The notes beneath the pieces were generated by a model. The model did no database searches, had not been told where the DNA came from, and saw only the letters and a program-made list of their open reading frames with translations. Both the position numbers and the translations under genes were made by a program. From Proteobacteria bacterium CG1_02_64_396 (GTDB taxonomy: Bacteria; Pseudomonadota; MNWR01; CG1-02-64-396), in contig MNWR01000048.1 of assembly GCA_001872725.1 (NCBI GenBank), forward strand, positions 1 through 56,559: a stretch of DNA of 56,559 bases, in the 5' to 3' direction. How positions within the stretch are numbered: the stretch's first letter is position 1; each line of letters opens with the position of its first letter. Shown here one piece after another: positions 50,967-56,559 of this stretch.

Positions 50967-52127
50967 ATGTCCACCATCGAATACCGTCCCGGTCTTGAGA
51001 AGGTCCCCGCCGTGCAGTCCTCGATCAGCTTTGTTGATGGGGGTAGCGGCATCCTCGAATACCGGGGGATCCCGGTCGAGGTGCTTGCCGAGGAGTCCTC
51101 CTTCCTGGAGGTCGCCTACCTGTTGATCTTCGACCGTTTCCCCCGCGCCGACGAACTGGCCCGCTGGGAGGCCGACATCCTCTACCACCGCAGGATCAAA
51201 TGGCACCTGCGCGACATGGTCAAGTTGCTGCCCAGCACCGGCCATCCGATGGACGCCATTCAGGCGCTGATCGCCGCCACCGGGATGTTCTATCCCATCA
51301 AGGACATCGCTCAGTACAGCCAGGAGCGCTTCGTCTACGAGGCGGCGATCCGCTTGCTTGGCAAGCTCCCCACCCTGGTTGCCACCTTCGCCCGCATGCG
51401 GGTCGGCTACGATCCGGTCCCCCCCCGCGACGACCTCGACCATGCCACCAACTTCTTGTGGATGCTGCTCGAAGAGGATCCCCAACCCGAGGTTGCCAAG
51501 GCGTTCGACGTCAGCCTGATTCTGCACGCCGAACACACCATCAACGCCTCGACCTTTGCAGGGCTAGTCACCGCCTCGACCCTGGCCGATCCCTACACCG
51601 TGGTCTCCGCCGCCATCGGAGCGCTGTCGGGGCCGCTGCACGGCGGAGCCAACGAACGGGTATTGGGGATGCTCAAAGAGATCGGCACCTTGGAAAACGT
51701 CGAGCCCTATCTGGTCGGCAAGCTGGAGCGCAAAGAGAAGATCTGGGGGCTGGGGCACCGGGTCTACAAGGTCAAAGATCCCCGCGCTCGGGTGCTGCAA
51801 AACCTGTTGGAGGGCGCGTTCGAGGCGGGAGGGGGCAAGGATCTGCACTACGCCATCGCCCAAGAGCTGGAGCGGATCGAGGGGACGAGCCTGGGGCAAG
51901 ACAAGGGGGTGTGGCCCAACGTCGATTTCTATTCGGGCATCCTCTACCACAAGATGGGGATCCCCACCGACCTCTTCACTCCGCTGTTCGCCATTGCCCG
52001 TACCGCCGGTTGGCTGGCCCACTGGTACGAGCAGATGCGAGCCAATGTGTTGTTCCGTCCCACCCAGGTTTATACGGGTCGGCACGGGCAGCCCTATGTG
52101 CCGATGGGGGAGCGCAAGCACGTGTAG
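50967..52127 (+). CDS. gltA: citrate synthase
   Basis: Condenses oxaloacetate and acetyl-CoA. The 386-residue protein is of the short, dimeric citrate/2-methylcitrate synthase type. Catalytic regions are HAEHTINASTFAGLV, GPLHGGANERV, WGLGHRVYK and VDFYSGILYHKMGIP. GAGGAGG precedes ATG 50967. The stop codon TAG is part of the first REP element (GTAGGAG from 52124), so the repeat has replaced or supplied the gene end. 2-methylcitrate synthase activity cannot be excluded. Confidence 0.9.
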   Translation: MSTIEYRPGLEKVPAVQSSISFVDGGSGILEYRGIPVEVLAEESSFLEVAYLLIFDRFPRADELARWEADILYHRRIKWHLRDMVKLLPSTGHPMDAIQALIAATGMFYPIKDIAQYSQERFVYEAAIRLLGKLPTLVATFARMRVGYDPVPPRDDLDHATNFLWMLLEEDPQPEVAKAFDVSLILHAEHTINASTFAGLVTASTLADPYTVVSAAIGALSGPLHGGANERVLGMLKEIGTLENVEPYLVGKLERKEKIWGLGHRVYKVKDPRARVLQNLLEGAFEAGGGKDLHYAIAQELERIEGTSLGQDKGVWPNVDFYSGILYHKMGIPTDLFTPLFAIARTAGWLAHWYEQMRANVLFRPTQVYTGRHGQPYVPMGERKHV

Positions 52128-52207
52128 GAGCGCCGCCTCGGCGCGATAGGTTTTGGCTTTTCGGCCGTTCTTGCTCCGATGGATCGCGCCGGGGGCGGCG
52201 CTCCTAC
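52124..52207 (+). repeat. BIME unit A (paired REP elements)
   Basis: The left arm GTAGGAGCGCCGCCTCGGCG continues GCGAT; about 36 bp later comes the inverted arm ending GGCGCTCCTAC. Each arm is itself a small palindrome (GCGCCG/CGGCGC). The first bases contain the citrate synthase stop codon. Confidence 0.92.
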
Positions 52208-52263
52208 GATTGGGGGTGGTTGGGGTTTTGTTTGATGTGCCGCCCCGCCCCCCCCACAGGGCG

Positions 52264-52347
52264 GTAGGAGCGGCTTCCCGGCGCGATAGGTTTTGGTTTT
52301 TTGGCAGTTCTTGCCACCGTTGATCGCGCCGGGGGCGGCGCTCCTAC
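52264..52347 (+). repeat. BIME unit B
   Basis: Left arm GTAGGAGCGGCTTCCCGGCG, continuing CGAT, and an inverted right arm from ATCGCGCCGGGGGCGG to CTCCTAC. The left arm is the GGCTTCC variant, so the two arms are not fully complementary. Confidence 0.92.
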
Positions 52348-52352
52348 GAGTG

Positions 52353-52622
52353 GAGGCGGGGTTGAGCGGTTGGGGTTGTAAGGGATGTGTTCCCCCGTTT
52401 GTGGCGATGTTTCGTGCGATCCCTTTGTTTCATTGGGCCGGTAGGAGCGGCTTCCCGGCGCGATAGGTTTTGGTTTTGTGGTCGTTCTTACCCCGTTGAT
52501 CGCGCCGAGGGCGGCGCTCCTACGAGGGGAGGCGGGGTTGAGCGGTTGGGGTTGTAAGGGATGTGTTCCCCCGTTGGTGGCGATGTTTCGTGCAACCCCT
52601 TCGTTTCATTGGGCCGGTAGGA
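52353..52622 (+). repeat. tandem duplication of a BIME plus linker (period about 177 bp)
   Basis: The 93-bp linker after unit B and that after unit C are nearly identical (both carry GGCGGGGTTGAGCGGTTGGG and TTTCATTGGGCCGGTAGGAG). Units B, C and D begin at 52264, 52441 and 52617. The few differences between copies indicate a recent duplication. Confidence 0.85.
52441..52523 (+). repeat. BIME unit C
   Basis: Left arm of the GGCTTCC variant and an inverted right arm ATCGCGCCGAGGGCGGCGCT continuing CCTAC. It has the same arrangement as unit B, one 177-bp period later. Confidence 0.92.
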
Positions 52623-52700
52623 GCGCCGCCTCGGCGCGATAGGTTTTGGTTTTGTGGCGGTTCTTGCTCCGATGGATCGCGCCGAGGGCGGCGCTCCTAC
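52617..52700 (+). repeat. BIME unit D
   Basis: Left arm of the GCCGCCT variant and a right arm with GCCGAGGGCGGCGCTCC. The arms are almost perfectly complementary over about 24 bp. Confidence 0.92.
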
Positions 52701-52753
52701 GAGTGGGGGTGGTTGGTTTTTGTTTAAGGCGCCGCCCCGCCCCCCGCAGGCCG

Positions 52754-52779
52754 GTAGGAGCGCCGCCTCGGCGCGATAC
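52754..52779 (+). repeat. single REP arm E
   Basis: Only the left arm (GTAGGAGCGCCGCCTCGGCG plus CGATA) is present. Unique sequence leading to the DUF4384 gene replaces the linker and right arm. It marks the left border of the DUF4384/caspase cassette. Confidence 0.88.
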
Positions 52780-52925
52780 GAAGAGGCAACGCGACGCGAT
52801 TCGATCCAGCACCCCGACAAGGTGAGGTGCGATCGTCACACCAAGTCCCCGCATCCTTTCCTCTCCCGGTCATCCTGCCTAACCTGTTGTCATCATCCCC
52901 CCATTCAAGGAAAGAGGACCGCCCT

Positions 52926-53789
52926 ATGCGCCCTACCCCTTTTTGGTTCGCCGTCGCCATCGCCTTGATCGCCCTTCCCGCCTGGGCGGGCTCCTCGACC
53001 ATTGTCGAAGCCGAGGGCAACGCCTGCATGGGCGACGATCTTTCACGCAAGCAGACCGAAACCCAGGCGATGGCCGACGCCAAGCGGGTGGCGGCGGAAT
53101 CGGCGGCGACCTATGTGCGCAGCCAGAGCGAGGTTGAGGACGCCATGCTGACCAAGGATCTGATCGCCGCCTACTCGGCGGCCCAGGTGACGGTCTTGGA
53201 GGTGCTGCAAAAGGGGTGGTATCGCGATCAGGCGGCGGGCGATTGCTTTGGGATGCGGATCCGCACCGAGGTTACCCCCGACGAGGCGGCCATTGCCCGA
53301 GTGGCCAAAAAAGCGGGCGGGGGTGGCATTGACGACCCCACCGCCCCCTTGGCGGTGAAGGTTTGGACCAGTCAAGAGCATTACCGCCCCAGCGAGCGGA
53401 TGCAGATTTACCTCAAGGGCAACAAACCCTTTTATGCGCGGGTGGTGTACCGCCAGGTCGATGGTGCCCAGATTCAGTTGCTTCCCAACCCCTACCGTGG
53501 CGCCAACCATTTTCAGGGCGGGGTGGTGTATGCGATTCCCGGCGACGGTGACCGTTTCGATCTGGATGTTTCCCCCCCCTTCGGCAAGGAGTCGGTATCG
53601 GTCTACGCCAGCACAGCCCCCTTGGGGGAGGTGCCGACCCAGGAGGCGGGCGGAGTCTATGTGGTTGAAGGGGATGTGGGGGTACGCAGTCGAGGGATCA
53701 AGCTGGTCGCATCCCAGGGGGGGAGCCACACGACCCCCGCTGCCGTCGAATTCGCCGAGGAACAGGCCGAGATGACGACCGGGCCGTGA
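52926..53789 (+). CDS. secreted DUF4384-domain protein
   Basis: A 287-residue protein with a signal peptide (about 1-21, cut after PAWA). An N-terminal domain rich in Ala and Glu contains a long helix. A DUF4384-like beta domain follows (about 139-235) with VWTSQEHYRPSERMQIYLKG, YRQVDGAQIQLLPNPY and a GDRFDLDVSPPFGKE segment. DUF4384 often occurs with caspase-like or other effector genes, and here a caspase-FGE gene follows 154 bp later. ATG 52926 is chosen for the signal peptide. Confidence 0.8.
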   Translation: MRPTPFWFAVAIALIALPAWAGSSTIVEAEGNACMGDDLSRKQTETQAMADAKRVAAESAATYVRSQSEVEDAMLTKDLIAAYSAAQVTVLEVLQKGWYRDQAAGDCFGMRIRTEVTPDEAAIARVAKKAGGGGIDDPTAPLAVKVWTSQEHYRPSERMQIYLKGNKPFYARVVYRQVDGAQIQLLPNPYRGANHFQGGVVYAIPGDGDRFDLDVSPPFGKESVSVYASTAPLGEVPTQEAGGVYVVEGDVGVRSRGIKLVASQGGSHTTPAAVEFAEEQAEMTTGP

Positions 53790-53943: not shown

Positions 53944-55866
53944 ATGAAGGCTTTCGCACAATGGCTGGCTGTGGCAATGGTTGCAGCGGGGTTGTCGTCT
54001 TCGGCTTGGGCCGACCGAGGCATCACCATCAGGGGGCAGATGGAGCAGCAAGCGGGGGTCAAGGTGGGGGCCTACCGCGCTCTGGTCATTGGTATCGACG
54101 ATTATGTCGATCCCAACATCCCCGATCTGCAAACCGCAAGCGCCGACGCCAGGGCGGTGGCCGAGTTGCTTAAAAAGAGCTATGGCTTCACCGACGTTAC
54201 CCTGTTGCTCGACCGCCTCGCCGATGGTTCCAGCATCCAAAAGCAGTTGCGCCGCTTGGCCACCACCAGCCGCCCCGACGATTCGGTGCTGATTTACTAC
54301 GCCGGGCACGGCGATCTCGACAGGGTGACTGGCGACGGCTGGTGGATCCCCGCCAGCGCCACGGCGGGCGATTCGTTCACCTACATGGACAACGCGGTCA
54401 TCCAGAAATACCTCAAGGCGATTCCGGCCCGGCATGTGTTGCTGGTTTCCGACAGTTGTTTCTCGGGCACCCTGTTCGGGGCCAGCCGGGCGATGCCCGA
54501 GGTGATCGACGACAAGTACTACGCCGCGATGTTCAAGGAGCGCTCCCGCTGGGGGATGACCTCGGGAAATTTAACGCCGGTGGCCGACGGGAGCTCTGGG
54601 GGGCACTCGCTCTTCGCCGGTCAGTTCATCAAGGCGCTGCAAGGCAACCTCCAGCCCTTTGTGACCCCGCGCGAGATCTACCAACGCATCGCGGCGGTCA
54701 TCAGCAACAACTCCGACCAGGTGCCCCAGGCCAATCCGATTCGCAATGTGGACGACGAGGGGGGAGCCTTCGTCTTCATCCGCAGCGACGGCGTCACCGC
54801 CGCCTCCAGACCGTTCCCTGCCGGGACGGCCGATTCGGGCGGCAATGCGATGGAGTTGGCCTTTTGGAACGCCATTAAAGACAGCGCCGATCCGGCCCAA
54901 TTCAGGGCCTACCTCGACCAATTCCCCAATGGCACTTTCGTTACCCTGGCGCGGCTCAAGGCGGGCAGTGCGCCGCACGTCGAGCCTGCACGAACCACCT
55001 TTGGCCTAACCATCGCCGCCACCCCTTCCGATGCCCGCATCCGCATTCTCAACATCGGCCCCGCGTACCAGCCCGGTATTCAGTTGGAGCCGGGGCGGTA
55101 CCACATCGAGGCGAGCCGTGCGGGGTATTCGACCCACACCGAATGGGTCGAACTGGGTCGCAGCGACATGACTCATGGCATCGCCCTGGATCAAAGGGGC
55201 ATCGAACTACCCGAGATGGTCGTCATCCCCGCCGGCAGCTTCACCATGGGCAGCAACGATGTCGATGACGAGGAAAAGCCGGTGCACACGGTGCAGATTC
55301 GCCGTTTCAAGATGATGACAACCGAGGTGACCCAAGCGTTGTGGGAGGCGGTGATGGGGAGCAATCCCAGCAGCTTCAAGGGGGCGGACCGCCCCGTGGA
55401 GAAGGTAAGTTGGGACGACATTCAAATCTTCATTCGCAAGCTGAACCAACACAGTGGTCAGCATTTTCGGCTGCCGAGCGAGGCGGAGTGGGAGTATGCG
55501 GCGCGGGCGGGAACAACGACGCGGTGGAGTTGGGGGAATAGCGATTCGGTTGCCGGGCAATACGCTTGGTACGACGGTAACAGCGGCGACCAAACCCACC
55601 CCGTGGGGCAAAAAAGCCCCAACGGTTTTGGGTTGTACGACATGCACGGCAATGTTTGGGAGTGGGTCGAGGATCGCTACCACGACAATTACAACGGCGC
55701 CCCCGGCGATGGTTCGGCTTGGACCTCGGGATCTTCGTTAAGCCGTGTGTTGCGCGGCGGCTCCTGGTACAACCTACCGAACAACCTGCGTTCGGCGAAC
55801 CGCTTCAGGGACAATCCCGACTTCCGGAGCACCAACTACGGCTTGCGTCTGGCCCAGGACTTTTAA
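53944..55866 (+). CDS. secreted caspase-like / FGE-fold protein, probable DGR target
   Basis: A 640-residue protein. Signal peptide (1-23), peptidase C14 caspase domain (about 44-280) with the catalytic dyad His122 (YYAGHGD) and Cys172 (SDSCFSGT), a linker with a WNAIKDSADPAQFRAYLDQF repeat-like element, a PEGA-like segment (353-416), and a C-terminal FGE/SUMF1 domain (421-638). The FGE domain lacks the catalytic Cys pair: the site after RGGSW reads YNLPNNLRS. It is thus likely a C-type-lectin-fold binding module, not a formylglycine generator. AGGAG precedes the ATG. The last 40 codons look like a DGR variable region. Confidence 0.88.
   Translation: MKAFAQWLAVAMVAAGLSSSAWADRGITIRGQMEQQAGVKVGAYRALVIGIDDYVDPNIPDLQTASADARAVAELLKKSYGFTDVTLLLDRLADGSSIQKQLRRLATTSRPDDSVLIYYAGHGDLDRVTGDGWWIPASATAGDSFTYMDNAVIQKYLKAIPARHVLLVSDSCFSGTLFGASRAMPEVIDDKYYAAMFKERSRWGMTSGNLTPVADGSSGGHSLFAGQFIKALQGNLQPFVTPREIYQRIAAVISNNSDQVPQANPIRNVDDEGGAFVFIRSDGVTAASRPFPAGTADSGGNAMELAFWNAIKDSADPAQFRAYLDQFPNGTFVTLARLKAGSAPHVEPARTTFGLTIAATPSDARIRILNIGPAYQPGIQLEPGRYHIEASRAGYSTHTEWVELGRSDMTHGIALDQRGIELPEMVVIPAGSFTMGSNDVDDEEKPVHTVQIRRFKMMTTEVTQALWEAVMGSNPSSFKGADRPVEKVSWDDIQIFIRKLNQHSGQHFRLPSEAEWEYAARAGTTTRWSWGNSDSVAGQYAWYDGNSGDQTHPVGQKSPNGFGLYDMHGNVWEWVEDRYHDNYNGAPGDGSAWTSGSSLSRVLRGGSWYNLPNNLRSANRFRDNPDFRSTNYGLRLAQDF
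55744..55863 (+). other. candidate DGR variable region (VR)
   Basis: Codons 601-640 encode RVLRGGSW followed by a pattern that in DGR-diversified FGE proteins is Asn-rich. At positions 609, 621, 623, 627, 629 and 630 the codons are TAC, TTC, GAC, TTC, AGC and ACC. Each can be derived from AAC by changes at A only, with the third base always C. AAC is retained at 610, 613, 614, 619 and 631. This is the pattern left by adenine-directed mutagenic retrohoming. No template repeat is in the window. Confidence 0.55.
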
Positions 55867-55898
55867 CCCTTTGCTCTTTTGACTTTTTCCCTTTTTTT

Positions 55899-55924
55899 GT
55901 AGGAGCGCCGCCCTCGGCGCGATG
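55899..55924 (+). repeat. single REP arm F
   Basis: A left arm in the 25-bp form (GTAGGAGCGCCGCCCTCGGC plus GCGAT) 33 bp after the caspase-FGE stop. It has the same orientation as arm E, so the two-gene cassette is bracketed by directly repeated single REPs. Confidence 0.88.
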
Positions 55925-55935
55925 GGTTTTGGATT

Positions 55936-55966
55936 CCGGGCGGCAACGCCGCCCGGCGATTTTTTT
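55936..55966 (+). terminator. hairpin with T run after caspase-FGE gene
   Basis: A perfect 9-bp CCGGGCGGC/GCCGCCCGG stem with loop AAC (55936-55956), then CGA and seven T. It works as a terminator on paper. If this was a DGR, a GC-rich hairpin near the VR could also be the cruciform that supports homing. Confidence 0.75.
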
Positions 55967-55975
55967 GGGGGGGGC

Positions 55976-56083
55976 ATGACGCCGGAGCGCGATACGACGC
56001 CTCAGGCGGTGGATCACTGCCACCGCCTGCTGGCCTGGATCATCCCCAACATCGATGGTTCGTCCGTCTCCCCCCGCAGGCCG
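55976..56083 (+). pseudogene. truncated avd-like (DGR accessory, four-helix-bundle) fragment
   Basis: ATG 55976 encodes 36 codons before REP unit G. Residues 10-27 (QAVDHCHRLLAWIIPNID) resemble the start of Avd/S23-type four-helix-bundle proteins, which usually read YxLLxWIIPxIxKFP. After residue 27 the resemblance stops and BIME linker sequence begins. The frame continues through the repeats to 56224 without meaning. Its place just downstream of the target gene is where avd sits in many DGRs. The match is short and judged by eye. Confidence 0.45.
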
Positions 56084-56166
56084 GTAGGAGCGCCGCCCCG
56101 GCGCGATAGGTTTTGTTTTTTGGCCGTTCTTGCCCCGATGGATCGCGCCGAGGGCGGCGCTCCTAC
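56084..56166 (+). repeat. BIME unit G
   Basis: Left arm GTAGGAGCGCCGCCCCGGCG plus CGAT and an inverted right arm GCGCCGAGGGCGGCGCTCCT plus AC. The central segment is GGTTTTGTTTTTTGGCCGTT-like, as in the left cluster. Confidence 0.92.
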
Positions 56167-56220
56167 GGGTGGGGATGGTTGGTTTTTGTTTAAGGCGCCG
56201 CCCCGCCCCCCCGCAAGGCG

Positions 56221-56303
56221 GTAGGAGCGCCGCCCCGGCGCGATAGGTTTTGTTTTTTGGCCGGTTCTTGCTCCGTTGATCGCGCCGGGGGCGGCGCTCC
56301 TAC
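56221..56303 (+). repeat. BIME unit H
   Basis: The same GCCGCCCC left-arm variant as unit G, with right arm GCGCCGGGGGCGGCGCTCCT plus AC. It is joined to G by a 54-bp linker almost identical to the D-E linker in the left cluster. Confidence 0.92.
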
Positions 56304-56359
56304 GAGTGGGGATGGTTGGGTTTTTGTTTGATGCGCTTCCCGGCCCCCCCCGCAAGGCG

Positions 56360-56442
56360 GTAGGAGCGGCTTCCCGGCGCGATAGGTTTTGGTTTTTGGT
56401 CGTTCTTGCCCCGATGGATCGCGCCGGGGGCGGCGCTCCTAC
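56360..56442 (+). repeat. BIME unit I
   Basis: The GGCTTCC left-arm variant and an inverted right arm ending CTCCTAC at 56442. It is the last unit, 39 bp before the transposase start codon. Confidence 0.92.
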
Positions 56443-56481: not shown

Positions 56482-56559
56482 ATGATCCCATCCCCCACCC
56501 GCTGGCGGGGCCACGCCCTGCGCACCTACCGCTTCTCCGAAGCCCACCGCCTCTACCAC
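56482..56559 (+). CDS. REP-associated tyrosine transposase (RAYT), 5' end only
   Basis: The first 26 codons of a gene cut by the window edge. GGAGG lies five bases before ATG 56482. Residues 8-26 (RWRGHALRTYRFSEAHRLYH) fit the N-terminus of IS200/IS605-related RAYT proteins, in which a GHALR-like stretch is followed by a tyrosine/His strand (xYHVT). The catalytic HUH and Tyr lie beyond the window. The dense cluster of GTAG-headed REPs directly upstream is the classic setting for such a gene and is the main support. Confidence 0.6.
   Translation, partial: MIPSPTRWRGHALRTYRFSEAHRLYH

What the first reader, a model, noticed from the sequence alone, without database searches (positions are those of the whole stretch)
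53944..56083. Remnant or split diversity-generating retroelement: caspase-FGE target, VR and truncated avd
The caspase-FGE gene ends in a segment with DGR variable-region codon patterns (six NNC codons at usual Asn positions). 110 bp downstream is a short frame resembling the Avd N-terminus, broken exactly where REP/BIME sequence begins. The order target-VR then avd is the standard DGR order. The picture is a DGR whose accessory gene was destroyed, and whose TR/RT were lost or separated, by repeat and transposase activity. If an RT elsewhere still serves this VR, it would be a trans-acting DGR.
Basis: partly seen in the sequence, partly recalled or inferred. Interest (0 to 1): 0.88.

Follow-up and report, generated by a model that had tools for sequence, protein, structure and literature searches.

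The report
Eroded diversity-generating retroelement with orphaned target
A secreted caspase-like protein here ends in a segment that was probably once mutated on purpose by a reverse-transcriptase "diversifier", but repeat DNA has replaced all of that machine except the first 27 residues of one helper gene, so the segment is most likely frozen; similar decay has been described before.

Summary
ORF 53944-55866 is a caspase (Peptidase_C14) plus FGE-type C-lectin protein. Its last 40 codons look like a DGR variable region. 109 nt downstream starts an ORF whose first 27 residues match the N-terminus of true Avd proteins that sit between an FGE target and a DGR reverse transcriptase in two other genomes (52-57% identity). 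Avd similarity stops at 56056, and a 138-nt REP/BIME array starts at about 56064-56070.

The own genome (98.5% complete) holds no DGR RT, although the same profile finds held-out RTs elsewhere. It holds no TR and no other Avd. The contig ends in a RAYT gene whose other copies lead straight to leuS or purE/purD, leaving little room for an RT.

So "remnant DGR" is supported, and a trans-acting DGR is not. The VR codon pattern is not diagnostic alone, because FGE domains from RT-free genomes show it too. Repeat arrays replacing DGR parts are already described (PMC10907252). This is a new, unusually complete case of a known kind. Whether the segment still varies needs population reads.

The parts
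53944..55866 (+). Caspase (Peptidase_C14)-FGE/C-lectin gene, the former DGR target; intact 640-aa frame with a signal-peptide-like N-terminus; YYAGHGD and SDSCFSG motifs present
   Evidence: Pfam C14 residues 45-262, FGE-sulfatase 422-637; PADLOC caspase; nearest solved structure to the FGE part is the DGR variable protein TvpA, 2y3c, E 5e-38
55744..55863 (+). VR-like 3' segment (RVLRGGSWYNLPNNLRSANRFRDNPDFRSTNYGLRLAQDF); VR status inferred
   Evidence: Aligned to the G047 TR: 13/30 A positions differ, 19/87 non-A positions differ (codon positions 1-2 only: 13/30 vs 6/48); 11 of 12 TR-Asn columns are NNC
55867..55975 (+). Spacer between target and avd remnant, holding one REP unit (55899-55931) and a 9-bp GC hairpin with a 3-nt loop (about 55936-55956) followed by a T run
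   Evidence: REP copy; hairpin fold z -2.0; may be a terminator rather than a DGR recognition hairpin
55976..56056 (+). Truncated avd: first 27 residues of an Avd-like protein (MTPERDTTPQAVDHCHRLLAWIIPNID)
56064..56442 (+). REP/BIME array, three copies of a ~138-nt unit, replacing the rest of avd
   Evidence: related copies on many contigs of the genome
56482..56559 (+). 5' end of a RAYT (REP-associated tyrosine transposase-like) gene, cut by the contig end; full 150-aa copy on contig C31
   Evidence: 78/78 bases identical to C31; RAYT naming is from protein motifs and the flanking REPs, not from a family search
52920..53789 (+). Upstream secreted DUF4384 protein gene, 154 nt before the target; possible partner
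   Evidence: PF14326 E 6e-21; partnership inferred from position only

Best explanation
This is a dead diversity-generating retroelement. A standard cassette (caspase-FGE target with VR, then avd, RT and TR) once sat here. A REP/BIME plus RAYT stretch now replaces everything after residue 27 of Avd. The target was kept as an intact gene with a frozen VR: a secreted caspase-like protease with a fixed C-lectin binding face, inherited from its diversifying past. The Avd remnant, the repeat boundary and the absence of RT and TR in the assembly are shown. That the segment was once written by mutagenic reverse transcription, that it no longer varies, and what the protein binds are inferred.
For: The Avd N-terminus is in the right place and order. 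G047 has VR end-avd-RT-TR and G101 has FGE target-avd-RT with a TR at the RT's 3' end, at similar spacing. L038 has a caspase-FGE gene followed by bAvd, RT and TR, showing that this protein type occurs as a DGR target. The own genome lacks RT, TR and any other Avd, with positive controls for the RT. Avd similarity ends 7-13 nt before the BIME array. RAYT 5' ends are seen only on C48 and C31, and 3' ends on C31, C85 and C11; the DNA after them leads to purE/purD (C85) or leuS (C11). The VR keeps 5 of 12 TR-type AAC codons, joint highest among non-template FGE ends in the set, and differs from the G047 TR mostly at A positions within codon positions 1-2.
Against: The Avd match is only 27 residues and is below curated family thresholds. 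VR-like codons also occur in FGE genes of genomes without an RT. No relative closer than phylum level is held, so the intact ancestral locus cannot be seen. About 1.5% of the genome may be missing, and the RAYT repeat breaks the contig here.
Confidence: 0.8

Rival explanations
1. Trans-acting or split DGR: an RT and TR elsewhere in the genome, or on an unassembled replicon or gap, still diversify this VR.
For: Trans activity has been inferred for incomplete DGR loci in Thiohalocapsa PB-PSB1 (PMC10907252). The contig ends 500 bp after the fragment and the assembly has 109 contigs.
Against: No RVT_1 and no DGR-RT profile match in a 98.5% complete genome, with the profile positive in held-out genomes. 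No TR with up to 3 non-A mismatches over 87 nt. Contigs carrying the RAYT 3' end lead to leuS or purE/purD.
Confidence: 0.06
2. The target gene alone, or target plus avd fragment, was acquired or duplicated from a DGR locus elsewhere; it was never diversified in this genome.
For: Several caspase-FGE relatives with VR-like ends lie in genomes without an RT (L040, L082).
Against: The retained avd start codon, its order and its spacing point to a cassette that was whole at this place. No second copy of the cassette exists in the genome.
Confidence: 0.09
3. Chance: an ordinary FGE gene followed by a meaningless short frame that resembles Avd.
For: The FGE codon pattern is generic. Curated Avd models miss the fragment.
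Against: With 399 genomes searched, its only confident hits are two true Avd genes in FGE-DGR loci. E 1e-6 versus 1.2 for the next best own frame; best of 20,001 against shuffles. It starts with ATG, lies in the right order, and stops at a repeat boundary.
Confidence: 0.05

Closest known systems
Degenerate DGR loci of Thiohalocapsa sp. PB-PSB1 (Dore et al. 2024, PMC10907252)
   Same: C-lectin/FGE targets in conflict-type proteins; arrays of short inverted-repeat elements have replaced the RT (DGR 4 and 5) or the TR (DGR 7)
   Different: There, complete DGRs remain in the genome and some incomplete loci seem to be served in trans; here no RT or TR is left. The repeats are described as MITE-like there; here they are REP/BIME next to a RAYT-like gene
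G047 and G101 FGE-type DGRs
   Same: VR or FGE target, then avd, then RT, with TR at the RT's 3' end; Avd N-termini 52-57% identical to the fragment; the G047 TR is the closest template-like sequence found
   Different: Intact cassettes; the G047 target is cut by the contig end and the G101 target's N-terminal part was not examined for a caspase domain
L038 (Acidobacteria MAG) caspase-FGE DGR
   Same: Caspase C14 plus FGE target, bAvd, RT and TR in one locus
   Different: Intact cassette; only about 35% identity over the whole target
TvpA, Treponema denticola DGR variable protein (PDB 2y3c)
   Same: Closest solved relative of the FGE part, E 5e-38; the VR-like end aligns with its C-terminal RVLRGGSW region
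   Different: No caspase domain is part of the match; low identity in the variable segment

Membership tests
Functional diversity-generating retroelement | Reverse transcriptase of the DGR clade | tested here: not met
   RVT_1 and DGR-RT profile find nothing in the own genome; held-out controls positive
Functional diversity-generating retroelement | Template repeat matching the VR with mismatches at adenines | tested here: not met
   A-tolerant pattern over 55777-55863 with up to 3 mismatches finds only the VR; blastn likewise
Functional diversity-generating retroelement | Accessory protein Avd, intact | tested here: not met
   Only 27 residues remain; no NF033474 match in the genome
Functional diversity-generating retroelement | Adenine-biased VR variation between cells or strains | not testable with these tools
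   No reads and no close relatives are held
Degenerate DGR locus (remnant) | Target with C-lectin/FGE fold and VR-like 3' end | tested here: met
   Pfam FGE, TvpA match and codon pattern; the codon pattern alone is not specific
Degenerate DGR locus (remnant) | Recognisable remnant of avd, RT or TR in the standard order | tested here: met
   Avd N-terminus 109 nt after the target
Degenerate DGR locus (remnant) | Missing parts coincide with inserted or replacing repeat DNA | tested here: met
   Avd ends at 56056; BIME array from 56064-56070; RAYT from 56482

The most novel reading that the evidence does not exclude
A trans-acting DGR whose RT and TR lie on an unassembled replicon or in an assembly gap still diversifies this orphan caspase-FGE target, so that loss of the local machine did not end its variation.
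Probability: 0.05. Interest if true: 0.65.

Novelty: new member of a known kind. Interest (0 to 1): 0.33.

Why it matters
It is a clean example of how a diversity-generating retroelement can end: the writing machine is gone down to 27 codons and a repeat array sits on the cut, yet the written protein keeps an intact frame. It suggests that some of the many FGE genes with VR-like ends in RT-free genomes may be frozen former DGR targets, which can be tested by looking for short avd remnants behind them. A second truncated avd behind an FGE target (L080) hints that such remnants recur.

Tried and rejected
TR search by blastn: the best non-self hit is a 19-bp match in C88 at E 0.17, in a stretch without an FGE gene, taken as chance.

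VR codon pattern as proof of a DGR: rejected, since 97 FGE ends show mostly 10-12 NNY of 12 irrespective of a nearby RT, and genomes of L040, L082 and others have no DGR-RT match.

Curated Avd models on the fragment: no match, presumably too short.

Third tblastn hit of the fragment, in G277: weak (E 0.004), with a stop, not in an Avd context.

Own FGE paralogues on C108 and C32 as VR donors: their ends do not resemble the VR.

Full report
What was checked. The window is the whole of contig C48 of a 2.94-Mb, 109-contig genome, 98.5% complete; no genome closer than the same phylum is held. The ORF 53944-55866 encodes 640 residues with a Peptidase_C14 domain (45-262) and an FGE-sulfatase domain (422-637). 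The closest solved structure to the FGE part is TvpA of Treponema denticola, a known DGR variable protein (E 5e-38).

The VR. Residues from RVLRGGSW to the end align with the TR of genome G047 (RVLRGGSWNNNPNNMRSANRNRNSTDNRNNNIGFRLVQS). Against the gene's 45% NNC usage this is p about 0.001. Compared with the G047 TR, 13 of 30 A positions and 19 of 87 other positions differ; within codon positions 1 and 2 it is 13/30 against 6/48. True VRs compared with their own TR differ at 2-3 non-A positions in G101 and L066, so the G047 TR is a relative and not the source. A caution: in 97 FGE ends from all loci, 10-12 NNY of 12 is the norm with or without an RT nearby, and the genomes of L040, L082, L067, L079, L049, L099 and G039 have no DGR-RT match. 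The codon pattern therefore cannot by itself show a DGR.

The avd remnant. The frame starting at ATG 55976, 109 nt after the stop, was used as a query in 399 genomes. The two confident hits, G047 and G101, are genes that pass the NCBIfam DivGenRetAVD cut-off. In G047 a contig reads VR end, avd, RT, TR; in G101 an FGE target, avd and RT, with a TR at the 3' end of the RT frame. Pairwise identity is 57% over 23 and 52% over 27 residues. A profile of these two Avds puts the frame at E 1e-6 among 2,524 own-genome frames, next best 1.2; a broader 18-member profile gives E 0.25 but still ranks it first, and first of 20,001 against shuffles. The match ends at residue 27, base 56056.

The breakpoint. 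A direct-repeat family of about 138 nt begins at 56070 (similarity from 56064) and runs in three copies to about 56442, followed by the 5' end of a RAYT-like gene at 56482. Related REP units occur at many places in the genome, one of them inside the target-avd spacer. Among the stretches examined, RAYT 5' ends occur only on C48 and C31, and 3' ends on C31, C85 and C11. C31 overlaps C85 by 327 bases at 99.7%, so by exclusion C48 probably continues into C11 (leuS); the alternative is C85 (purE, purD). Either way the next gene after the repeats is a housekeeping gene (named here from the protein sequences, not from a family search). This linkage is inferred from the repeats, not read through.

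RT and TR. RVT_1 gives nothing in the own genome. A profile of ten DGR RTs gives nothing, while it finds RTs that were not in the profile in G124 (E 1e-144), G017 and G218. A pattern that lets every VR base be itself or A, over 87 nt with up to three mismatches, matches only the VR. DivGenRetAVD has no match in the own genome.

What it is. The best reading is a DGR deleted from residue 28 of Avd onwards, with the target kept. Shown: the target, the Avd start, the repeat boundary, and the absence of RT, TR and other Avd in the assembly. Inferred: that this segment was once written by the RT, that it is now frozen, that the repeats or their transposase caused the loss rather than filling the site later, and that the protein acts as a secreted sensor-protease.

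Relation to what is known. A caspase-FGE gene with bAvd, RT and TR occurs intact in L038. Dore et al. 2024 report DGR loci in Thiohalocapsa in which MITE-like repeat arrays replaced the RT or the TR, with some incomplete loci apparently diversified in trans (PMC10907252). The present case is of that kind, with the difference that no DGR machinery remains in the genome as assembled. It fails the defining features of a functional DGR that could be tested.

Noticed in passing
L151 4793-11808 (G000 contig C108, about 24.8-31.8 kb): Four consecutive caspase-FGE-type genes in tandem, beside genes that look like nifE/nifN/nifX; their C-terminal ends show no VR-like pattern. One was confirmed by Pfam; the others are by similarity.
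   Followed up: partly
L080 6898-7095 (Oscillatoriales cyanobacterium USR001): A 65-aa truncated bAvd (profile positions 3-52 of 107) right behind an FGE gene with a VR-like end, with no RT motif in the fetched flanks: a possible second avd remnant.
   Followed up: partly
window 52113-52778: A second REP/BIME array in the same contig, upstream of the DUF4384 and caspase-FGE genes, so the pair is flanked by repeat arrays on both sides.
   Followed up: no
L157 1942-3114 (G047 contig C45): An FGE gene on a different contig from the G047 DGR, differing from the G047 TR at 16/30 A and 11/87 other positions: a possible remote or former target.
   Followed up: no
G401 (genome of L039), contigs C289, C282, C515: Three DGR-RT matches in one genome, one with an internal TGA.
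   Followed up: no
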